This document shows positions 18,564 to 31,707 of a DNA stretch of 41,081 bases, in pieces. Both the position numbers and the translations under genes were made by a program. The notes under the pieces were generated by a model, which did not search any database, was not told the origin of the DNA, and saw only the letters and a list, made by a program, of their open reading frames with translations. The DNA is taken from contig CAIJPI010000280.1 of assembly GCA_903822525.1 (NCBI GenBank), positions 1 to 41,081 on the forward strand. Direction: 5' to 3'. This DNA is from an uncultured Bacteroidales bacterium (lineage in GTDB: Bacteria > Bacteroidota > Bacteroidia > Bacteroidales > UBA4417). Every line of letters begins with the position of its first letter. The stretch's first letter is position 1.

Positions 18564-19793
18564 ATGGATTTTGTAACCGACAAATTGGCACTCATTGGCA
18601 ACAGAGGAAAAGGAATCCGCTCGGATTGTCATATTACACTCGAGTTGACAGAAAAGGATGGCATACAACTTGAACTTATCAGTAAGGTTGAAGCTATGTA
18701 TGGTGAAGCTATCCGCAAGCTGATACATGATATTCTTGCTTTTTATGATATTCAGCATGCGCGTGTACTTGTTGAAGACTCTGGCGCTCTGAGCCCTGTT
18801 ATGGCTGCACGTATGGAAGCGGCAATCAGGCAGCTTACCGGTTCGGAAAAGGAATACCTTCTTCCTATGCTTGCTGAAAATCTTTATGGGACAGCTCGCG
18901 ACAGGAATCGTTTTTCGAGGCTTTACCTGCCGGGAAATACACCAAGCCTAATGATTAATGCCGGTATTCATAAACCCGATGGTATTATACTTGACCTGGA
19001 GGATGCTGTTGCGCCTGCTAAAAAGTATGAAGCCCGTTTTTTGGTTCGGAATGCTTTGCGCAATATCGATTTTTATTCAGCCGAGCGTATGGTTCGCATC
19101 AACCAGGTTCCGGCTGGGTTAGCCGATCTCGATTTCCTTGTTCCTCACAATGTAAACCTGGTATTGGTCCCTAAGTGTGAAAGCGCTGATCAACTCAGGC
19201 AGGTGAATGAGAAAATTAATCAATTGAAATCCCGGAATAATGTAGACAGAACGATTTGGCTTATGCCCATTATCGAGAGTGCGCTTGGCGTTTTAAAAGC
19301 TCTCGAAATAGCCCAGAGCGAAAATGTTGTCGCCATAGCCATTGGCCTGGAGGATTACACTGCCGATCTGGGGACACGCAGAACCCAGGAAGGTACCGAG
19401 TCGTTCTTTGCCCGCAGCATGGTTGTAAATGCCTGCAAAGCTGCCGGTATACAGGCTATCGACTCGGTTTTCAGCGATGTGGCCGATATGGAAGCCCTCA
19501 AAGAAACGGTTATACGTTCAAAGGCTCTTGGCTTCGATGGTATGGGGTGTATACATCCGCGCCAGATACGGGTTATACACGAAAACTATGCTCCCGACGC
19601 TGCTGAAATTGAAAAAGCTATGAAAATTGTGAATGCTTTTATACAAGCTTCGGCTAAAGGACTGGGCGTTGTGTCGCTGGGAACAAAAATGATCGATCCG
19701 CCTGTAGTAAAACGTGCCCAGAAACTGATTGACCTGGCTGTGACCATGGGGAAACTGTCTGCTGATTGGCATGATGAGTTTTTGAATTTGTAG
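18564..19793 (+). CDS. Citrate lyase gamma (ACP) and beta subunits fused (CitD-CitE)
   Basis: Two citrate lyase subunits in one 409-residue chain. Residues 1-~95 match CitD, the acyl carrier protein: IRSDCHITLEL holds the serine (Ser20 by alignment) that carries the phosphoribosyl-dephospho-CoA group, and VLVEDSGALSPVMAARMEA matches the CitD C-terminal motif. Residues ~118-409 are CitE (HpcH/HpaI-fold lyase): LYLPGNTPSLM, ILDLEDAVAP, MPIIESALGVL, AIGLEDYTADLG and GCIHPRQI. CitE releases acetyl-ACP and oxaloacetate from citryl-ACP. Because CitD is fused on, other CitE-like lyases (for example malyl-CoA) are unlikely. citF follows 273 bases later. citC, citX and citG are not in the window. Confidence 0.9.
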   Translation: MDFVTDKLALIGNRGKGIRSDCHITLELTEKDGIQLELISKVEAMYGEAIRKLIHDILAFYDIQHARVLVEDSGALSPVMAARMEAAIRQLTGSEKEYLLPMLAENLYGTARDRNRFSRLYLPGNTPSLMINAGIHKPDGIILDLEDAVAPAKKYEARFLVRNALRNIDFYSAERMVRINQVPAGLADLDFLVPHNVNLVLVPKCESADQLRQVNEKINQLKSRNNVDRTIWLMPIIESALGVLKALEIAQSENVVAIAIGLEDYTADLGTRRTQEGTESFFARSMVVNACKAAGIQAIDSVFSDVADMEALKETVIRSKALGFDGMGCIHPRQIRVIHENYAPDAAEIEKAMKIVNAFIQASAKGLGVVSLGTKMIDPPVVKRAQKLIDLAVTMGKLSADWHDEFLNL

Positions 19794-19802
19794 ATAGATT
19801 TT

Positions 19803-19860
19803 TAATGTCGGATGTGGGATGTGGGATGTTGGATGTTGAAAGTGGGATGTTGAATGTGAA
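19803..19860. repeat. Degenerate tandem GGATGT(TG) repeats
   Basis: Repeated units such as GGATGTGGGATGTTGGATG, variable in length. They continue to about 19860. They read as a pseudo-peptide of HPTFNIQHPT type on the minus strand, which is not a protein. Confidence 0.8.
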
Positions 19861-19950
19861 AATGAATAGTAGATTTAATATTTATGACTGAAATTGCAAA
19901 ATGAATGAAAAATATTTGAGGGAAACATGGCTTCGAAATATTGCTAAGAA

Positions 19951-20010
19951 TCGGTCTTCCGACTTCCGACTTCCGGCTTCGGTCTTCCGTCTTCGGTCTT
20001 CCGTCTTCCA
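19951..20010. repeat. Degenerate tandem CTTCCG-type repeats
   Basis: Units CGACTTCCGACTTCCGG and then CGGTCTTCCGTCTTC recur through 60 bases between citDE and citF. They are purine/pyrimidine-asymmetric and differ in composition from the first repeat block 90 bases away. Confidence 0.8.
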
Positions 20011-20066
20011 TCCAGATAAATTAGAAATACATCACGCTCATCTCTTTTTTAATTGATCAGAAAGAT

Positions 20067-21629
20067 ATGTCAAAATACGATAAATTAACGACAAATGCAG
20101 TGGGCCGCACTGTTCCACAGGTAGTTAACGGTAAAGATGCCATTCCATTTATGGGTGTTGGCAAATTCAAGCCTACCGGTCGCAAATATGGTCCGCTTAT
20201 TACTTCCTGTGCTGATTTTCCTGATGATGGAAACAAGGTAGTGCCTTCGCTGAAAGAGGCGCTGGTCAGGGCAGGTATTGCTGACGGTATGACAATTTCC
20301 ACCCATCATCATTTTCGTAATGGGGACCTGGTCGGAAATCAGATTTTTGATGCAGCCGCTGAACTGGGGATTAAAAATCTCACCTGGATGCCTTCCGCTT
20401 CGTTCGAATGCCATGCGCCCATGATAAAATACCTCGAAAATGGGGTAATTCACCATATTGAAGGCAGCATGAACGGTGCCCTTGGAAAATTTACTTCCGA
20501 AGGTAATATGGCAGGGCTGGGTGTACTCCGCTCGCACGGTGGCCGTTACCAGGCTATACAGGATGGTGATGTGCACATTGATATTGCCGTGATAGCAGCT
20601 CCTACTGCCGATTGCTTCGGAAATGCTACCGGCGATCGCGGACCTGCCGCCTGCGGATTATTAGGTTTCGCTTTAGCCGATTCGCAATATGCTGACAAGG
20701 TGGTTGTTGTTACTGATAACCTGGTCCCTTTCCCTTGTGTGCCCTGGCAAATACAGGGGAATTATGTTGATTTTGTAGTGGTGATGGATAGAATAGGTAT
20801 TCCCGAAAAGATCATTTCCGGTACTACCGAAATCACAAAAAGTCCTGACCGGCTTCTGCTGGCTGAGATGACAGCACAATTTTGCAGCGAAACCGGCATC
20901 GTTCACGATGGTTTTTCGTTTCAGGCTGGTGCAGGCGGAACCGCCTTATCCATAGGTATATATTTTGCCGAAATGCTCCGGAAACAAGGAATGAAAGCCC
21001 GTTTCGCAAGGGGCGGAAGCAACAAGTACCTGGTAAAAATGCTGGAGGAAGGCTTAGTCGATTTTATTCTAGATGGACAGACTTTTGATCTGGAAGGTGT
21101 GCGCTCGATGCGCGAAAATCCGGGCCATCTCAATACCAGCCCGTTTACAAGTTATAACTATCACGGTAAGGGGAATTTTGCACAATTCGTTGATGTTGTC
21201 ATACTTGGCGCAACCGAAGTGGATGTTAATTTCAATGCCAATGTGGTAACCCATTCGGATGGATACCTGCTGCATGGTATTGGTGGTTGGATGAATTGCC
21301 TGCTATCGAAATGCGTGATTCTGCCGATTCCTTTGTTTCGAGATCGTATGCCTGTTATCCGCGATGAGGTTACAACTATTTGTGGACCCGGTGAACTGAT
21401 TGACGTCATTGTTACCGAACGCGGTATTGCCATCAATCCGTTGCGTACGGATCTGATCGAAAAAATGAAAGGAAGCTCTCTGCCTATTAAGACTATTCAC
21501 GAACTCAAGGCTGAGGCCGAAAAAATATGCGGCAAGCCTAATAAAGCCCGTCTGACTGACGAAGTAGTTGCCGTTATTAAATGGGTGGATGGAACTGTGA
21601 TTGACTCGGTTTTCAGGGTCGATAAGTAA
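20067..21629 (+). CDS. citF: Citrate lyase alpha subunit (citrate:acetyl-ACP transferase)
   Basis: Transfers the CitD acyl carrier from acetyl to citrate, the first step of citrate cleavage in anaerobic citrate use. The 520 residues match CitF throughout: STHHHFRNGDLVGNQIFDAA, GVIHHIEGSMNGALGKF, LRSHGGRYQAIQDGDVHIDI, APTADCFGNATGDRGPAACG and later GAGGTALSIGIYFAEML and VNFNANVVTHSDG. Length is close to the family's ~510. It begins 273 bases after citDE, behind the two repeat blocks, and ends with a terminator. No separate promoter could be recognised, so it is probably read from the citDE promoter. Confidence 0.95.
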   Translation: MSKYDKLTTNAVGRTVPQVVNGKDAIPFMGVGKFKPTGRKYGPLITSCADFPDDGNKVVPSLKEALVRAGIADGMTISTHHHFRNGDLVGNQIFDAAAELGIKNLTWMPSASFECHAPMIKYLENGVIHHIEGSMNGALGKFTSEGNMAGLGVLRSHGGRYQAIQDGDVHIDIAVIAAPTADCFGNATGDRGPAACGLLGFALADSQYADKVVVVTDNLVPFPCVPWQIQGNYVDFVVVMDRIGIPEKIISGTTEITKSPDRLLLAEMTAQFCSETGIVHDGFSFQAGAGGTALSIGIYFAEMLRKQGMKARFARGGSNKYLVKMLEEGLVDFILDGQTFDLEGVRSMRENPGHLNTSPFTSYNYHGKGNFAQFVDVVILGATEVDVNFNANVVTHSDGYLLHGIGGWMNCLLSKCVILPIPLFRDRMPVIRDEVTTICGPGELIDVIVTERGIAINPLRTDLIEKMKGSSLPIKTIHELKAEAEKICGKPNKARLTDEVVAVIKWVDGTVIDSVFRVDK

Positions 21630-22594: not shown

Positions 22595-24037
22595 GTGGAA
22601 AATTCGGACCATATTGAGATACTTCGCGCTCTTTTTCTAAACTGGGCACCCGAAAAGGGAATAGAGATTTTACCTCTTCCCCAGGCTGGTTCATACCGGC
22701 AGTATTACCGGATTACCGGCCAGCAAAAGCATGCAATAGGTGTTTACAGCCCTGATAAAAGCGAAACAACCGCCTTTTTAACATTCACAAACCATTTCAG
22801 GCAATTGGGGCTTCAGGTTCCTGAAATATATGCTTCCGATCCTGAAAACGATTGTTACCTGATAAGCGATCTTGGGAATATGTCGCTGCTTGATCACCTG
22901 GAGTTGAATCGTACAGGAGGCATACCTTCGGACGAAACCTATGAGTTTTACCGGCTTGCAATTGCTGAACTTCCACGTTTTCAGGTTGATGCCTGCAGGG
23001 ATATGAACTTTTCTGTTTGTTATCCTTCGGGCGAATTCGATGGACGTGCCATGCGCTGGGATCTCAATTATTTCAAATATTACTTTTTGCGGCTGCTTAA
23101 AATACCTTTCAACGAAGCAGCGCTTGAAGATGATTTTGACCGGCTGATTATTCATTTACTGCAAAGCGGGGGTAATTATTTCATGTACCGCGATTTTCAG
23201 GCCCGCAATATCATGGTGCACGAAGGAAAACCCTGGTTTATCGATTATCAGGGCGGCAGGCGCGGACCGCTGCAGTACGACCTGGCTTCGCTGCTTTTTC
23301 AGGTTAAGGCATCTTTGCCTTATTCGTTCAGGGAGGAAATGCTTGGCTGGTATCTCGAGAATCTGAAAAAGTATATCAGTATTGATGAAAAGAGGTTTAT
23401 TGACGACTATTACGGATTTGTGCTGATCCGCTTGCTTCAGGTTATGGGAGCGTATGGTTTCAGAGGATATTTCGAGCGCAGGGCTCATTTCCTGCAAAGC
23501 ATACCCTATGCAGTCGAAAATCTCCGCTGGCTGCTTGCAAACGTAAAATTCAGAATTGAAATGCCTGAATTAATGAAAGCTTTACAGCAGGTTGCAGATA
23601 CTGAAATAAAATTACCTTACCTGCCCGAAACCGGCTCGCTTACCGTTACAGTAAACAGTTTTTCATTCAAAAACGGCCCTCCACCCGATTATTCAGGGAA
23701 TGGAGGTGGATTTATTTTCGATTGCAGGGCTTTGCCCAATCCCGGCCGTTACGACCATTATAAGAAATTTACCGGGCTCGATGAGTCTGTCATCCAGTAC
23801 CTCGAAAGAGAACCGGTGGTGATAAAATTTTTGCAGAACGTGTATAAAATTGTCGATCAGAGTATACTCGAATACCAGCGGAGGGGATTCAGTCACCTGC
23901 AGGTAAATTTCGGATGTACAGGCGGACAGCATCGTTCAGTATACTGTGCTTCGCGACTGGCTGCATATATTGATGAAAATTATTCGGTAAAAGTCATCAT
24001 TTCGCACAACGAAATGAAAAACCTTATGTTCAAGTAA
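22595..24037 (+). CDS. AmgK-like sugar kinase fused to a RapZ C-terminal domain
   Basis: A 480-residue two-domain protein starting with GTG. Residues 1-~335 are an aminoglycoside-phosphotransferase/AmgK-like kinase: YLISDLGNMSLLDHL, the catalytic loop YRDFQARN (Asp200) and Mg-binding FIDYQGGRRGPLQYDLASLL (Asp217). AmgK phosphorylates MurNAc or GlcNAc at C1 in peptidoglycan recycling. Residues ~348-478 match the C-terminal domain of RapZ: FDCRALPNPGRYDHYKKFTGLD, then VNFGCTGGQHRSVY (441-450). In E. coli that domain binds glucosamine-6-phosphate and a small RNA. The RapZ N-terminal P-loop domain is absent. A MurU-like gene lies 570 bases on. The domain calls are strong; the sensing role is inference. 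Confidence 0.9.
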   Translation: MENSDHIEILRALFLNWAPEKGIEILPLPQAGSYRQYYRITGQQKHAIGVYSPDKSETTAFLTFTNHFRQLGLQVPEIYASDPENDCYLISDLGNMSLLDHLELNRTGGIPSDETYEFYRLAIAELPRFQVDACRDMNFSVCYPSGEFDGRAMRWDLNYFKYYFLRLLKIPFNEAALEDDFDRLIIHLLQSGGNYFMYRDFQARNIMVHEGKPWFIDYQGGRRGPLQYDLASLLFQVKASLPYSFREEMLGWYLENLKKYISIDEKRFIDDYYGFVLIRLLQVMGAYGFRGYFERRAHFLQSIPYAVENLRWLLANVKFRIEMPELMKALQQVADTEIKLPYLPETGSLTVTVNSFSFKNGPPPDYSGNGGGFIFDCRALPNPGRYDHYKKFTGLDESVIQYLEREPVVIKFLQNVYKIVDQSILEYQRRGFSHLQVNFGCTGGQHRSVYCASRLAAYIDENYSVKVIISHNEMKNLMFK

Positions 24038-24069
24038 ATGATACCTTCATTCCTGTAAACTTTAAACCT

Positions 24070-24102
24070 CTGGATTAAATCAGTAGCTGAAAGTTAATCC
24101 AG
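24070..24102 (+). terminator. Possible hairpin after the AmgK-RapZ gene
   Basis: CTGGATTAA and TTAATCCAG, with an inner CAG/CTG pair, can form a stem. A T-run follows only after about ten bases, so termination is uncertain. The rest of the 208-base gap holds nothing recognised. Confidence 0.35.
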
Positions 24103-24245
24103 TTCTTTAGGCATTTTTTAAAGGATATTTGAAACAAGGGATCAGAAAAAACTTAATCACTTACTGATTCAAAGTTTGAAAGTGTCAGCTCAATTAAAAT
24201 AAGTGTAAAAAAATAAATAGTAAATCCTGAAAATTACAGAGTCCA

Positions 24246-24611
24246 TTGGAACAATTTGATATTGAGATTTATAAGAATAAGACTGAGATAATCCGCCAGA
24301 CAGTAGTGCAGATTATTAAAGATTTTACCATGTTCGGGATGGATGTTGAGTTTACCGGCAATGAAGCTATGGCATACAATGAAATGTTTATGCAATTGTT
24401 ATCGCATGTTTCGCATATGCTCGAAACGGATCCCCACAGGCTTTCGGCTTTACTATACCAGGTTGATCTGGGCGAGAATAAGATCATGGAATCGAGTTCC
24501 CTGCATCCTGAATGGACCTTGCCCGAAGTGATAACGGAACTGGTTATTCACCGTGAACTCAAGAAAGTCCTGATACGGAACTATTATAAAAATAATCCCG
24601 ATAAATTATGA
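24246..24611 (+). CDS. Small conserved-looking protein before murU, unknown function
   Basis: A 121-residue frame that starts with TTG at 24246; the only nearby ATG is about 29 codons in (MFGMDVEF) and would lose a well-formed N-terminal helix. It has no signal peptide or membrane segment. The sequence is helical and acidic-amphipathic (KNKTEIIRQTVVQIIKDF, LLSHVSHMLETDPHRLSALLYQ), with VDLGENKIMESSS in the middle and WTLPEVITELVIHRELKK near the end. Its stop overlaps the MurU start as ATGA, implying translational coupling. I do not recognise a family by motif. Its position suggests a partner of the sugar nucleotidyltransferase. Confidence 0.75.
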   Translation: MEQFDIEIYKNKTEIIRQTVVQIIKDFTMFGMDVEFTGNEAMAYNEMFMQLLSHVSHMLETDPHRLSALLYQVDLGENKIMESSSLHPEWTLPEVITELVIHRELKKVLIRNYYKNNPDKL

Positions 24612-25342
24612 AGGCAATGATTTTTGCCGCCGGCTTAGGTACCAGGTTAAAACCCTATACCGAAAATATGCCGAAAGCCCTTGTGCCTGTTGCCGGAGTT
24701 CCGATGCTGGAGATACTGATAAAGCATCTTCTGGAAAGTGGTATCCGGGATATAATTGTAAATGTGCATCATTTTGCCGGTCAGGTTATTGATTTTCTCG
24801 ACCGGAATAAGAATTTCGGAGCAAATATTGCCATTTCGCATGAGGACGAATTGTTGCTTGATACCGGTGGCGGGTTAAAAAAAGCTGCCTGGTTTTTTAA
24901 CGATAACGAGCCTTTTCTGGTTCAGAATGTTGATGTGTTAAGCGACCTGGACTACAGCAAAATGCTTGACACGCATACTAAAAGCGGTGCGCTGGCTACC
25001 CTGGCGGTTTGCAGGCGCTCAACCTCCCGGTATTTTCTTCTGGATGATCAGAATCAGCTGTGTGGCTGGGAAAATACCCAAACCTCCGAAGTGAGAATGG
25101 TTCAGCCGGGGGCGCAAAATCTGAACCGCTTTGCTTTTAGCGGAATTCATATTATCGACCCCTCCATTTTCGGGTTTATGCCTGAGGGTGGTAAATTCTC
25201 TATTGTTGCCACATACCTTGATCTGGCAGCCAGCAAGAAAGTGATAGGCTTTCAGCACAATCCCGAAACCTGGGTGGATATGGGCAAGCCTGAGGAATTG
25301 CTTAAAGCAGCAAGTATTCTCAAAAGTATGAAAAATGCGTAA
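24608..25342 (+). CDS. MurU-like sugar-1-phosphate nucleotidyltransferase
   Basis: A 244-residue enzyme of the NDP-sugar pyrophosphorylase family, close to MurU (MurNAc-1-P uridylyltransferase) by neighbourhood. The nucleotide-binding signature is at the N-terminus: FAAGLGTRLKPYTENMPKAL followed by VPVAG. Other motifs are NVHHFAGQVIDFL, DTGGGLKKA, VQNVDVLSDLDY (metal-binding Asp) and ETWVDMGKPEELLKA near the end. There is no left-handed beta-helix acyltransferase domain, as in MurU. With the AmgK-like kinase nearby it would complete a MurNAc (or GlcNAc) to UDP-sugar shortcut. Specificity cannot be read from the sequence; other NTP-sugar products are possible. Confidence 0.88.
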   Translation: MKAMIFAAGLGTRLKPYTENMPKALVPVAGVPMLEILIKHLLESGIRDIIVNVHHFAGQVIDFLDRNKNFGANIAISHEDELLLDTGGGLKKAAWFFNDNEPFLVQNVDVLSDLDYSKMLDTHTKSGALATLAVCRRSTSRYFLLDDQNQLCGWENTQTSEVRMVQPGAQNLNRFAFSGIHIIDPSIFGFMPEGGKFSIVATYLDLAASKKVIGFQHNPETWVDMGKPEELLKAASILKSMKNA

Positions 25343-28428: not shown

Positions 28429-28505
28429 GGTTCGGTAGTTCAGTTGGTTAGAATACGTGCCTGTCACGCATGTGGTCGCGGGTTCGAGTCCCGTCCGGAC
28501 CGCCA
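28429..28505 (+). tRNA. tRNA-Asp (anticodon GTC)
   Basis: A 77-nt tRNA with encoded CCA. The acceptor stem GGTTCGG pairs with CCGGACC (one G-T). The anticodon stem carries loop CTGTCAC, giving anticodon GTC at 28463-28465. The T arm GCGGG-TTCGAGT-CCCGT and the discriminator G are standard. It has its own promoter and terminator. Confidence 0.97.
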
Positions 28506-28593: not shown

Positions 28594-29448
28594 TTATTTT
28601 ACAATCGGATTAGCGGTAATGGAAGCCCATTCAGCATAAGCCCCGGCATAAAGTTTAACGTTCGGGAAACCGGCAATCTGCCTGAGTGCTATATATGTAA
28701 CAGCGGCTTTAATTCCAGTCTGACAGTAGACTACGATTTCTTTTTCTGATGTTGCGCCTGCTTTTGCAGCTATAGCCATGATTTCTTCTTTCGTTTTATA
28801 TGCTCCGGTAACTGTAAGCATATCCTTGTAATACAGGAACACAGCTCCCGGCAGATGCCCCTGGCTTTTTTTGTCTTTATCAATACCTTTATATTCGTCA
28901 GGTTCGCGTACATCGAGCAATAATGCTTTAGGATTAGTTTCCAGTGCTTTTACAGCAGCCATATCGATGTTCATATCAATATTTACTGTGGGAATAAAAG
29001 TAGTCGCTTTAAGTGAAACCGGGGTATTGGTCATGGGAATACGGGCCGCTTCCATTTGAGCCATATCCTTATGAAGTAATAAAACATCAGTAGCACCCAT
29101 GTATTTTAAAACCCACCAGACACGGCTATTGTATTTCTGTGAACCATCGTCATAAATTACGATTTTTGAATTATTGCTGATTCCACTTTTACCGAAAATG
29201 GATGCCAGTTCGGCCAGATCCTTAAACTGGCCTTCAACAGGGCCTGGTTTATAAAGACTTTTGTGTGGTATATTAACAGCTCCCTGTATATGCTGTTTAG
29301 CATATACATCTGAAGCCTGAACATCAATAACTACCATCGATTTGTTTGCTTTAAGTTCAGATCCAAAGTCTTTTGCCGAAATGGAAACCTGCGCCTGCAG
29401 GCTTAGGATGCTAAAAAAGCTTAACAGACAAAGTATTATTATTTTCAT
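28594..29448 (-). CDS. Exported tandem-rhodanese sulfurtransferase
   Basis: A 284-residue periplasmic protein. Residues 1-20 are a signal peptide ending LQAQ. Two rhodanese domains follow, the arrangement of thiosulfate or 3-mercaptopyruvate sulfurtransferases. The first has VVIDVQASDVYAKQHIQGAVNIP, but its active-site loop is YDDGSQKYNSR with Asp instead of Cys, so it is catalytically dead, as usual for the N-terminal domain. The second has LLLDVREPDEYKG and the active loop VVYCQTGIKAA with Cys242. Sulfane sulfur transfer is expected; the donor is not clear. It is the last gene of a unit behind the porin (58 bases). Confidence 0.88.
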   Translation of the reverse strand: MKIIILCLLSFFSILSLQAQVSISAKDFGSELKANKSMVVIDVQASDVYAKQHIQGAVNIPHKSLYKPGPVEGQFKDLAELASIFGKSGISNNSKIVIYDDGSQKYNSRVWWVLKYMGATDVLLLHKDMAQMEAARIPMTNTPVSLKATTFIPTVNIDMNIDMAAVKALETNPKALLLDVREPDEYKGIDKDKKSQGHLPGAVFLYYKDMLTVTGAYKTKEEIMAIAAKAGATSEKEIVVYCQTGIKAAVTYIALRQIAGFPNVKLYAGAYAEWASITANPIVK

Positions 29449-29506
29449 GATTCTTTTTTTTTTGACAAATTTATTTTGGGGGCATTGGCCTAGCTGAATG
29501 TGAAAC

Positions 29507-30634
29507 TTAATTCAATTTAACCTGGATCTGCATCAGAAGCATATCATTAGGTATTTCATTGTAATTTACAATGTCGGATGAAGAACTTGACTCAATGTTG
29601 TACAAGTAATTAAGTTGGAGCCTTACCCAGTCATTTGCATAATAATTTAGTCCGAATGTTAGTGTTGATTTACGGAATGCTGTATGATCATAATCCGCCT
29701 TATCCAAATCCTGATCATAGGTCTCATATTTTACTAAAGGCATTACTTTAAATTTGGTGTTGTACATAAGTTGTGCAAAATAGCCATTGCTTTTAAAGTT
29801 GCCGAGAACAAGTTCGGGAGTAGCCCCACATCCGCCACCAATAAGCTTTGACCCTTCATCTCTGCCAAACACATATTCCGATTGAAGTATGAAATTGTGT
29901 TTTTTCAAGGTAACATCAAATCCATATCTCATGCGTATATCCTTTGTAATAACCGTTGGATCCGGATTTTTCTGTTTTCCATACTGATAGCTGCCACCGA
30001 TACTGATCCAGTCGTAAGGCGCAATTACCAACCGGCCAATAAAATCTTTAGCCATGTCAATATCATAGGCGTTTTTGCCTGTTCCATTTGTAACAGATAG
30101 TGAGTAGGATAAGATGTTTTCTTTATCCAGGCCAAGTATTTTTTGGGGTCCTGTACTGCCGCTGATCATCACGCCCAGATCGCGATCAGGTGAAGTGAGT
30201 TCATTTACAACCTTTGACCGGTTGATGGTATAGAGATCCTGGCATGCAGTTGATCCTAATTCAAGACCAAATGGTTTTTTGAACTGCCCCATCGAAATTT
30301 TCAACCAGGGTTTAAATCTGTTATAAGTGACGAATGCATCAAGTAAGTAGGGGCCATTCTGAAAGGAGCTGAATTCGGCCATAACGTGATAGGAGAAATC
30401 GTAAGGTATAACACCCGTTACCCCTAAGCGAGCCCTTCGAAAGTAAAAGCCCATATCGTTTTTTGAAGTGCCGTCAACATTGTCACCGTTAAAACCGATT
30501 TTAAATTCAGGCTGAATATAGCCAATTACAGAAACGCCACCTGATGAAGACGCAGGTTCCATGCAACCTTGTGCACTAATGTGCACAGACACAAAAAAGG
30601 TGAGAATTATAAGTATTGAAAGAGTCTTTTTCAT
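29507..30634 (-). CDS. OprO/OprP-like outer membrane porin
   Basis: A 375-residue beta-barrel with an N-terminal signal peptide (to about ISAQ, residue 21). Typical strands alternate throughout, for example VIGYIQPEFKIGFNG, FYFRRARLGVTGVIPYDFSY, KISMGQFKKPFGLELG and a C-terminal MLLMQIQVKLN ending in a barrel strand. The FRRARLGVTG and GQFKKPFG segments are hallmarks of the phosphate-selective porin family, which in Bacteroidota has varied anion substrates. Co-transcription with two sulfurtransferase genes suggests a sulfur anion such as thiosulfate (inference). A 15-bp hairpin stands just before its start. Confidence 0.85.
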   Translation of the reverse strand: MKKTLSILIILTFFVSVHISAQGCMEPASSSGGVSVIGYIQPEFKIGFNGDNVDGTSKNDMGFYFRRARLGVTGVIPYDFSYHVMAEFSSFQNGPYLLDAFVTYNRFKPWLKISMGQFKKPFGLELGSTACQDLYTINRSKVVNELTSPDRDLGVMISGSTGPQKILGLDKENILSYSLSVTNGTGKNAYDIDMAKDFIGRLVIAPYDWISIGGSYQYGKQKNPDPTVITKDIRMRYGFDVTLKKHNFILQSEYVFGRDEGSKLIGGGCGATPELVLGNFKSNGYFAQLMYNTKFKVMPLVKYETYDQDLDKADYDHTAFRKSTLTFGLNYYANDWVRLQLNYLYNIESSSSSDIVNYNEIPNDMLLMQIQVKLN

Positions 30635-30647
30635 TGTATGTATTTTA

Positions 30648-30683
30648 TATAAGGGGAAGAATGCATAGATTCTTCCCCTTATA
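30648..30683 (-). promoter_or_regulatory. Strong intercistronic hairpin before the porin gene
   Basis: Arms TATAAGGGGAAGAAT and ATTCTTCCCCTTATA form a 15-bp perfect stem with a 6-base loop. It ends 13 bases before the porin ATG at 30634. No U-run follows. It may be a processing or attenuation structure. Confidence 0.7.
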
Positions 30684-30702
30684 AGTATAATTAATTACTA
30701 AA

Positions 30703-31707
30703 TTAATTGGTTACAAGAGCCCAGTTTTTAGCTCCAGGATAAACGGGTTTTTTAGCAGACTTCAGACCATCAAAAATAAGTTTATTAGCCCCGAAACCAA
30801 TGCTTTTTGTATTATATCCCAGAACGTTAAGCCAGAAAGTAGCAATACTCGAAGTTTGGCCTGTATAACAATAAACCAGAGCCTGTTTAGATGGATCGAT
30901 TGCTTTTACCATATCACCAGCCAATGAAATAACAGGTAAATCAAAAGCACCTGCAAAATGGCCTAGTGCAAGATAGTCGGCGGCAGACCAATAGTTCATT
31001 ATCTGGAAAGTAGCAGGGTTAGCCAGAACATCAGCTGCTGCCTGTGTTGAAAATCCTGCATCAAGAACAGCCTGAACGCGTTCCTTTAATATAGTTGCTC
31101 CATCGGTGGAGGTTGATGTCCAAACAGGCTCAACAAAGGCGCCATTTGCCGGGGCTTCGGTTGTTACCCAGTTAGGGCTGCCAGCTGCAATATTGCCATT
31201 TGCACCAACTTCAGCACCTGAATTAGAAACCCAGGCACCTTTGCAGGCTGCATTCCAACCAGCCATGCCCCATTTCAGTACAACTGCATTCGGGAAACCT
31301 GAAAGGCGAAGAGCCATGACAGCCTGGCCTGCTGTTTGACCTGTGTAACATACAACACAAATCGGTTTATCAGTGTAATTTGCAGCTGTAGTAACTACGT
31401 CTTTAAGTACAACATTAACAGCATTTTTGATATGACCTGCAGCATAATCGGTAGCAGAGCGGATATCAAATACGTTGTAAGCAGGCAAAGTACTTGTAAG
31501 TGAATCAATAGGTCCACCCATCGCAGTTGATTTGGGATCTACAATCCAGGTCTTAGCCAAATCAGGAAGATCGAGCGTTTTGGAAACCATGTATGTTTTC
31601 AATGTAAGATAGGCATTAACAGCTTCAGGTGCATCCTTTTTACAGGATGTCATCATCAGTACAGGCACAAATGCCAATAAAATTGCGAGGTTAATTAGTT
31701 TTCTCAT
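30703..31707 (-). CDS. Lipoprotein with two active-site rhodanese domains
   Basis: A 334-residue lipoprotein: lipobox MMTSCKK with Cys22. Two rhodanese-like domains follow. The first has YNVFDIRSATDYAAGHIKNA and active loop VCYTGQTAG (Cys120). The second has YWSAADYLALGHFAGAFDLP and loop YCYTGQTSS (Cys280), but lacks the usual Asp-Arg/Val start of that strand. Both catalytic cysteines are kept, unlike the dead first domain of the other rhodanese here. It should sit on the periplasmic or outer membrane face. It is the first gene of the minus-strand unit, read from the promoter at 31783-31790. Confidence 0.88.
   Translation of the reverse strand: MRKLINLAILLAFVPVLMMTSCKKDAPEAVNAYLTLKTYMVSKTLDLPDLAKTWIVDPKSTAMGGPIDSLTSTLPAYNVFDIRSATDYAAGHIKNAVNVVLKDVVTTAANYTDKPICVVCYTGQTAGQAVMALRLSGFPNAVVLKWGMAGWNAACKGAWVSNSGAEVGANGNIAAGSPNWVTTEAPANGAFVEPVWTSTSTDGATILKERVQAVLDAGFSTQAAADVLANPATFQIMNYWSAADYLALGHFAGAFDLPVISLAGDMVKAIDPSKQALVYCYTGQTSSIATFWLNVLGYNTKSIGFGANKLIFDGLKSAKKPVYPGAKNWALVTN

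What the first reader, a model, noticed from the sequence alone, without database searches (positions are those of the whole stretch)
22595..25342. AmgK-RapZ fusion, coupled unknown and MurU: a possible self-sensing cell-wall recycling module
One chain joins an AmgK-like kinase (catalytic loop YRDFQARN, Asp200) with the C-terminal domain of RapZ (CTGGQHRSVY). Known biology: AmgK and MurU form the MurNAc-to-UDP-MurNAc shortcut in Pseudomonas and others; the RapZ C-terminal domain in E. coli binds glucosamine-6-phosphate and an sRNA to control GlmS. Here they share a chain, with a MurU-like gene nearby. Inference: the fused domain senses an amino-sugar and sets kinase flux, or links recycling to RNA control. 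The RapZ P-loop domain is absent, so RNA adaptation may be lost.
Basis: partly seen in the sequence, partly recalled or inferred. Interest (0 to 1): 0.75.

Follow-up and report, generated by a model that had tools for sequence, protein, structure and literature searches.

The report
Kinase fused to RapZ phosphatase-like domain
Many Bacteroidota and some other bacteria make one protein that joins a cell-wall-sugar kinase to the sugar-phosphate-binding end of the regulator RapZ; its distribution and a phosphatase-like loop suggest that the joined part may be the missing enzyme that strips a phosphate from recycled wall sugar before the kinase uses it.

Summary
In detail: 22595-24037 encodes one 480-aa protein with an AmgK-like kinase and a RapZ C-terminal domain (117 bits, cut-off 27), followed by a 121-aa protein and a MurU-like enzyme. 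It is no local oddity: of 296 genomes of the window's phylum, 36 carry the domain, 27 fused and 7 as adjacent AmgK/RapZ_C/MurU genes. MurU is the only neighbour recurring in more than 9 of 106 loci (73); the 121-aa gene is lineage-restricted.
The 'self-sensor' reading is possible but not favoured. The domain keeps a C-x2-G-x2-R-S loop, already compared with tyrosine-phosphatase loops by RapZ authors. AnmK, which makes MurNAc-6-phosphate, occurs without the etherase MurQ in 13 of 26 RapZ_C+ AnmK+ genomes and 0 of 182 RapZ_C- AnmK+ genomes, and in 84 of 93 RapZ_C+ AnmK+ same-order genomes. I propose a MurNAc-6P phosphatase doing MupP's job beside the kinase. Activity is untested; 10 of 36 carriers lack AnmK, and Foldseek shows no cysteine phosphatase. 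RNA control is unlikely: no P-loop domain; E. coli His190 is Gly384.

The parts
22595..24037 (+). AmgK-like kinase fused to RapZ C-terminal domain, 480 aa, GTG start
22595..23599 (+). APH-fold (AmgK-like) kinase domain, residues 1-335
   Evidence: PF01636 and NF045759 matches; closest solved fold 3csv
23186..23209 (+). kinase catalytic loop YRDFQARN (Asp200, Asn205)
   Evidence: sequence; invariant D200 and N205
23240..23257 (+). kinase metal-binding motif IDYQGG (Asp217)
   Evidence: D217 invariant; role assigned from general knowledge of APH kinases
23615..23632 (+). flexible linker between the domains, residues 341-346 (pLDDT under 50)
23636..24016 (+). RapZ C-terminal domain, residues 348-474
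   Evidence: PF22740; Foldseek to E. coli RapZ E 1.8e-10
23696..23710 (+). GNGGG (368-372), in or beside a five-residue insertion relative to E. coli RapZ (exact place ambiguous)
23738..23746 (+). Asn-Pro-Gly (382-384); Gly384 lies where E. coli RapZ has pocket residue His190
23915..23938 (+). C-T-G-G-Q-H-R-S (441-448), phosphatase-type C-x2-G-x2-R-S loop between a strand and a helix
24246..24611 (+). 121-aa protein of unknown family, lineage-restricted
   Evidence: no Pfam match up to E 1
24608..25342 (+). MurU-like sugar-1-phosphate uridylyltransferase, 244 aa
25430..28318 (+). neighbour: AddB-like PD-(D/E)XK repair nuclease; follows MurU in some relatives, probably not part of the pathway

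Best explanation
The locus encodes an anabolic muramic-acid salvage module. A two-domain enzyme takes MurNAc-6-phosphate, the AnmK product. Its RapZ-type domain removes the 6-phosphate with a cysteine-based C-x5-R loop (Cys441 nucleophile, Arg447 and backbone amides holding the phosphate). The kinase domain puts a phosphate on C1 of the resulting MurNAc, and MurU makes UDP-MurNAc. The RapZ domain would thus do the job of MupP. Shown: the fusion, the conserved loop, the MurU linkage, and that AnmK without MurQ goes with this domain. Inferred: the phosphatase activity, its substrate, and that this kinase and this MurU act on muramic acid.
For: (1) Domain pair and linkage: 27 of 36 RapZ_C genomes fused; in 7 of the other 9 it is a separate gene between AmgK and MurU; all 36 also have an AmgK-like kinase. 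MurU lies within 700 nt downstream in 58 of 80 named loci and 27 of 35 phylum loci, window left out; apart from the fusion itself it is the only gene cluster recurring in more than 9 of 106 loci (73). (2) Loop: C.GG.HRS is kept in 39 of 40 domains that a family model had found (39 genomes, one counted twice); the strand-loop-helix arrangement is predicted at pLDDT 91; the matching E. coli pocket binds sulfate or malonate. In E. coli, C247A and C247S both inactivate RapZ, the authors suspect a catalytic -SH, and a crystal with GlcN6P shows what is likely a transformed product. RapZ authors compared the pocket with tyrosine-phosphatase loops. (3) Pathway logic: AnmK with no MurQ in 13 of 26 RapZ_C+ AnmK+ genomes (7 family labels; 5 fused, 6 split beside AmgK, 2 with the domain elsewhere) against 0 of 182 RapZ_C- AnmK+ (Fisher 7e-14, not corrected for kinship). 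Same-order sample: 84 of 93 against 4 of 6, with RapZ_C tied to AnmK (93 of 124 against 6 of 25). The window's genome has AnmK, no MurQ and one fusion. (4) No match to the MupP model over its cut-off in 149 genomes; 26 of the 84 have no match to it at E 1e-3. (5) The 64 phylum genomes with an AmgK match but no RapZ_C have no AnmK match, and in the 3 opened a MurU-like match follows AmgK directly. (6) The one loop found with its Arg lost among the 40 (G406) is in a genome without AnmK and with MurQ.
Against: No activity is shown. 10 of 36 phylum genomes, 31 of 124 order genomes and 8 of 30 named genomes with the domain lack AnmK, among them Bacteroides, Parabacteroides and Phocaeicola. 16 of 36 and 19 of 124 also have MurQ. 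Four RapZ_C- AnmK+ MurQ- genomes exist in the order (G304, G312, G377, G401; reported completeness 88, 70, 92, 97%). Foldseek lists no cysteine-based phosphatase among the 50 rows shown of 319; two rows at E 1.6-1.7 are kinase/fructose-2,6-bisphosphatase enzymes, of another mechanism. So the likeness is local. E. coli RapZ, with the same loop, is known as a binder and sensor. HAD phosphatases are present, so an unlinked one could do the step; the MupP cut-off is not reached even by the Caulobacter control. Points 3 and 5 rest partly on few clades (f5 gives 6 of 13, f18 gives 63 of 64). The PF22740 control did not ring in B. subtilis, said to have a RapZ homologue, so absences may include misses. 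One named locus (L070) has His in place of the Arg, and its genome has AnmK.
Confidence: 0.42

Rival explanations
1. Allosteric sensor: the RapZ domain binds a sugar phosphate (GlcN6P or a pathway product) without turning it over and raises or lowers the kinase rate.
For: The E. coli domain binds GlcN6P on its own with high affinity and RapZ acts as a sensor; pocket residues C247, T248, G249, H252, R253 are kept here; full-length model pTM 0.69 with an unordered linker fits a movable regulatory domain; the domain occurs also without AnmK.
Against: Pocket residue His190 (H190A had the strongest effect on RNase E interaction in E. coli) is Gly in all 74 domains of alignment A2, and a loop is inserted, so GlcN6P binding cannot be assumed; near-invariance of the Cys is more than a phosphate-binding pocket needs; does not predict AnmK without MurQ.
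Confidence: 0.3
2. The domain is a phosphatase, but for another amino-sugar phosphate (GlcNAc-6P, GlcN6P) or for clearing damaged sugar phosphates, and the MurNAc-6P step is done by something else.
For: Same loop evidence; explains genomes without AnmK; AmgK is also named a GlcNAc kinase (model title).
Against: Leaves AnmK without MurQ unexplained; linkage is specifically to MurU.
Confidence: 0.13
3. Structural role: the domain serves to dimerise or hold the kinase near MurU, and an unlinked HAD phosphatase supplies MurNAc.
For: The E. coli domain forms a dimer; HAD phosphatases occur in the window's genome (7 HAD_2 matches).
Against: The loop residues, not only the fold, are conserved; of 6 of the 7 HADs scanned, the one nearest to the MupP model scores 36.6 bits (cut-off 359) and fits phosphoglycolate phosphatase better (124.5 bits).
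Confidence: 0.11
4. RNA control: the domain binds a small RNA and links salvage to RNA decay as in E. coli.
For: Lys170, Arg184 and Arg211 positions are kept.
Against: No N-terminal domain; His190, Lys203, Arg238, Lys251 replaced; authors hold the RNA-binding part restricted to Enterobacteriaceae; the only Rfam match in the window is a tRNA.
Confidence: 0.04

Closest known systems
AmgK (MurNAc/GlcNAc 1-kinase of Pseudomonas and others)
   Same: Best NCBIfam model for the kinase domain; catalytic Asp and Asn kept; MurU beside it
   Different: 66.6 bits against a cut-off of 550; carries a RapZ domain; no activity tested
RapZ (E. coli; sRNA adaptor and GlcN6P sensor)
   Same: C-terminal domain: Pfam above cut-off, 33-35% identity and TM 0.71-0.83 (query length) to solved RapZ chains; C247-R253 loop kept except K251
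   Different: No P-loop domain; fused to a kinase; His190 to Gly, Lys251 to Gln; inserted loop
MurU
   Same: Best NCBIfam model for 24608-25342; gene order AmgK then MurU
   Different: 136.2 bits against cut-off 250; substrate untested
MupP (HAD-type MurNAc-6P phosphatase)
   Same: Proposed function between AnmK and AmgK (role of MupP: PMC5371407, passages seen)
   Different: Unrelated fold and mechanism; MupP is a stand-alone HAD enzyme
Cysteine-dependent tyrosine phosphatases (C-x5-R)
   Same: C-x2-G-x2-R-[ST] loop between strand and helix (signature recalled); likeness already stated for RapZ in PMC7199280
   Different: No global fold match in the Foldseek rows shown; general acid not identified

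Membership tests
AmgK | scores above NCBIfam AmgK equivalog cut-off | tested here: not met
   66.6 of 550 bits; 0 of 296 phylum genomes reach it, nor does the Caulobacter control
AmgK | APH-type catalytic Asp, Asn and metal-binding Asp | tested here: met
   D200, N205, D217 invariant
AmgK | phosphorylates MurNAc/GlcNAc at C1 | not testable with these tools
   no assay
RapZ | RapZ C-terminal domain | tested here: met
   PF22740 117.1 bits, cut-off 27; Foldseek E 1.8e-10
RapZ | N-terminal Walker-motif domain | tested here: not met
   NCBIfam RapZ match covers model positions 155-277 only
RapZ | pocket residues H190, T248, G249, H252, R253 (C247 near) | tested here: not met
   five of these six kept, H190 is Gly384
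RapZ | binds GlcN6P and a small RNA | not testable with these tools
   RNA-contact residues K203, R238, K251 replaced
MurU | scores above NCBIfam MurU cut-off | tested here: not met
   136.2 of 250 bits, yet first of 41 matches
MupP (HAD) | HAD fold | tested here: not met
   no HAD match in the protein; works-like claim only
C-x5-R phosphatases | C-x2-G-x2-R-[ST] loop between strand and helix | tested here: met
C-x5-R phosphatases | fold of a known cysteine-phosphatase class | tested here: not met
   50 rows shown of 319 hold none; 269 rows not seen
C-x5-R phosphatases | phosphatase activity through a cysteinyl-phosphate | not testable with these tools
   no assay

The most novel reading that the evidence does not exclude
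The RapZ C-terminal domain is a further fold class of cysteine-based sugar-phosphate phosphatase. In Bacteroidota and other phyla it works as the MurNAc-6-phosphate phosphatase of the AnmK-AmgK-MurU route, fused to the kinase so that the phosphate moves from C6 to C1 on one polypeptide. The RNA-adaptor and sensor role in E. coli would be a later use of an ancestral enzyme domain.
Probability: 0.33. Interest if true: 0.85.

Novelty: new variant of a known kind. Interest (0 to 1): 0.62.

Why it matters
The AnmK-to-MurU salvage route needs a phosphatase, and the MupP model reached its cut-off in none of 149 same-order genomes. If the RapZ domain is that enzyme, it fills a gap in wall recycling in a large bacterial group, it explains why RapZ keeps a phosphatase loop, and it suggests that a well-studied RNA regulator arose from a metabolic enzyme. 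One assay with one purified protein, with and without its cysteine, would decide it.

Tried and rejected
RNA-adaptor reading: rejected for lack of the N-terminal domain and loss of contact residues. The 121-aa protein as an essential part: rejected (24 of 149 genomes; adjacent in 9 of the 20 loci checked by script; in the other 4 it lies on another contig than the RapZ domain). AddB neighbour as part of the pathway: an AddB-like match is held in 7 of 115 loci, so not a general partner. Membership of a known phosphatase fold: not supported by Foldseek. MupP present instead: no match over cut-off in 149 genomes, but the cut-off is too strict to exclude it. A deeper structural comparison (VIA-align) was not available. 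I first thought the phosphatase-loop likeness was new; it is in print (PMC7199280). Literature on the fusion: full-text searches for AmgK with RapZ (0 papers), RapZ with Bacteroidetes (1, listing seen), RapZ with peptidoglycan recycling (1, listing seen), and any three of RapZ/fused/kinase domain/Bacteroidota (5 papers, none holding RapZ) gave no report of it in the library held; subscription papers, such as the 2021 Tannerella salvage paper cited in PMC13046382, were not seen.
Full report
WHAT IS THERE. The frame 22595-24037 encodes a 480-aa protein. Pfam finds an APH-type kinase domain and the RapZ C-terminal domain, both above cut-off. NCBIfam ranks AmgK first for the kinase part, though far below the equivalog threshold, and places RapZ only over its C-terminal half. 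Asp200, Asn205 and Asp217 are invariant in the 15 aligned sequences. The 121-aa gene overlaps the MurU-like gene by four bases. AlphaFold models the isolated domain at pLDDT 91 and the whole protein at pLDDT 90 and pTM 0.69, with residues 341-346 unordered; so two good domains, with their mutual placement uncertain. Foldseek puts 3csv first for the whole protein and E. coli RapZ first for the C-terminal domain.

IT IS A WIDESPREAD MODULE. The window's phylum and order were not named by any tool; named relatives point to Bacteroidota and Bacteroidales. In a draw of 296 genomes of the phylum, 36 carry the RapZ domain: 27 in frames of 478-524 aa, 9 in frames of 134-155 aa. In 7 of those 9 the domain is a separate gene with AmgK upstream and MurU downstream (frames seen for L031, L034, L037 and L039); in the other 2 it has no AmgK or MurU match nearby, and an AmgK-like kinase lies elsewhere in the genome. 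In the same-order draw 124 of 149 genomes have it; 117 of the 125 matches lie in frames of 398 aa or more. A scan of named genomes kept 80 of at least 588 relatives, including contigs titled Ignavibacteria, Calditrichia, Acidobacteriaceae, Elusimicrobia, Gemmatimonadales and Delongbacteria. These are mostly MAG contigs, so misbinning is possible, and the named set overlaps the other draws (L066 and L067 have the contig lengths and coordinates of G216 and G156, which the tool counts in the window's phylum). By frame length and co-linear matches 79 of the 80 are fused and L090 is split. MurU lies within 700 nt downstream in 58 of these 80, with 2 more cut by a contig end, 2 with MurU elsewhere in the locus and 18 without a MurU match in the stretch held; in the phylum loci 27 of 35. 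Clustering the open frames of 106 loci, MurU recurs in 73 and, apart from the fusion itself, nothing else in more than 9. The 121-aa gene is found in 24 of 149 order genomes and beside the fusion in 9, the window included.

THE LOOP. The domain holds C441-T-G-G-Q-H-R447-S448 at the end of a strand and the start of a helix. The pattern C-x2-G-x2-R-[ST] is the phosphatase-loop signature (recalled). Khan and Gorke state the likeness for RapZ and speculate on GlcN6P hydrolysis (PMC7199280; passages and the first part of section 2 seen). In PMC9841335 (passages seen) C247A and C247S both abolish E. coli RapZ activity, the authors suggest a catalytic -SH, and density in the crystal with GlcN6P is likely a transformed product. 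PMC5737377 (passages) shows the pocket with malonate or sulfate and a fold likeness to phosphofructokinase. The position of E. coli His190 is Gly in all 74 sequences of A2; it is not in L121 and G406. A loop with GGG is added (39 of 40). In 40 domains from 39 genomes (35 phylum loci without the window, plus 5 order loci that I picked for low score or for lacking AnmK), 39 keep C.GG.HRS and 38 keep NPG[RK]. The exception in the loop, G406, keeps the Cys but has lost the Arg and His. In the 80 named loci the motif was part of the search pattern, so its conservation there proves little; L118 and L121 vary at an x position, and L070 has His for the Arg.

PATHWAY LOGIC. In Pseudomonas, AnmK makes MurNAc-6P, MupP removes the phosphate, AmgK and MurU make UDP-MurNAc; E. 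coli instead uses the etherase MurQ (PMC5371407, passages). I therefore asked which genomes have AnmK but no MurQ. MurQ was called present at E below 1e-40, a threshold that I set; weaker hits in the order sample are mostly open frames of about 600-660 aa that look like the SIS domain of GlmS (identity inferred from length). Phylum sample: 26 of 36 RapZ_C genomes have AnmK, 13 of those 26 lack MurQ; of 182 RapZ_C-free genomes with AnmK, 0 lack it. The 13 carry 7 family labels, f5 giving 6; in 5 the domain is fused, in 6 split beside AmgK, in 2 elsewhere. Order sample: 93 RapZ_C+ AnmK+, 84 without MurQ; 6 RapZ_C- AnmK+, 4 without MurQ (three of these with reported completeness 92% or less); 31 RapZ_C+ AnmK-, 10 with MurQ; 19 with neither RapZ_C nor AnmK, 8 with MurQ. 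No genome reaches the MupP cut-off, and 26 of the 84 lack any match to that model at E 1e-3, but the Caulobacter control also stays under it, and its reported MupP candidate is only 32.6% identical (PMC13046382, passage). The 64 phylum genomes with an AmgK match but without RapZ_C (63 of one family label) show no AnmK match; in three that I opened a MurU-like match follows AmgK. Of 30 named fusion genomes tested (of 80), 22 have an AnmK match (10 of the 12 whose titles name none of the usual Bacteroidota groups; two of these matches, in L066 and L080, are partial); the 8 without are L067, L090, L093, L103, L110, L121, L127, L128. L121 has a divergent domain without the inserted loop. The one broken loop among the 40 (G406) sits in a genome without AnmK and with MurQ; L070, with His for the Arg, has AnmK and was not tested for MurQ. 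The counts are on lists that I copied from the outputs. The PF22740 control did not ring in B. subtilis, which is said to have a RapZ homologue (PMC9841335), so some absences may be misses.

READING. The simplest account of a domain that in the phylum draw always travels with AmgK, usually with MurU, keeps a phosphatase loop, and marks the genomes where MurNAc-6P has no MurQ, is a MurNAc-6P phosphatase beside the kinase. This is inference: no activity was measured, kinship was not corrected for, and about a quarter of carriers lack AnmK, which leaves room for a sensor or another substrate. Tannerella forsythia, in which AmgK and MurU are said likely to replace MurA/MurB (PMC7670621, passages), would be a telling case; a Tannerella sp. 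MAG carries the fusion (L120) and AnmK, but T. forsythia itself was not examined.

NOVELTY. I found no report of the fusion in the full-text searches listed under Tried and rejected. The parts are known families and the loop likeness is in print; the architecture, its spread, the split forms and the AnmK-without-MurQ pattern are what this report adds.

Noticed in passing
window 18564-21629: A citrate-lyase pair in which an acyl-carrier (PF06857, CitD/MdcD-like) domain is fused to the N-terminus of a CitE-like lyase, followed by CitF.
   Followed up: no
window 28594-31707: Two proteins with rhodanese-like sequences (judged by eye) flank a porin-like protein on the minus strand.
   Followed up: no
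window 28429-28502: A tRNA gene between the AddB-like gene and the minus-strand cluster.
   Followed up: no
L181 4073-6283 (G298): An AmgK-RapZ_C protein with an extra N-terminal part (736 aa in all), a MurU-like gene overlapping downstream.
   Followed up: partly
L156 4835-5209 (G406): RapZ domain in a 476-aa frame with Arg and His of the loop lost, in a genome without AnmK and with MurQ.
   Followed up: partly
L070 1064-1480: Saprospiraceae MAG whose loop reads CTGGQHHS, His for the conserved Arg; its genome has AnmK.
   Followed up: no
L183 (G180) and L184 (G271): Stand-alone AmgK-like kinases in genomes whose RapZ domain is an orphan gene elsewhere; no MurU match in the stretches held.
   Followed up: partly
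BFVD matches: Short proteins named RapZ C-terminal domain or RNase adaptor in giant viruses (Klosneuvirus, Yasminevirus, Hyperionvirus and others).
   Followed up: no
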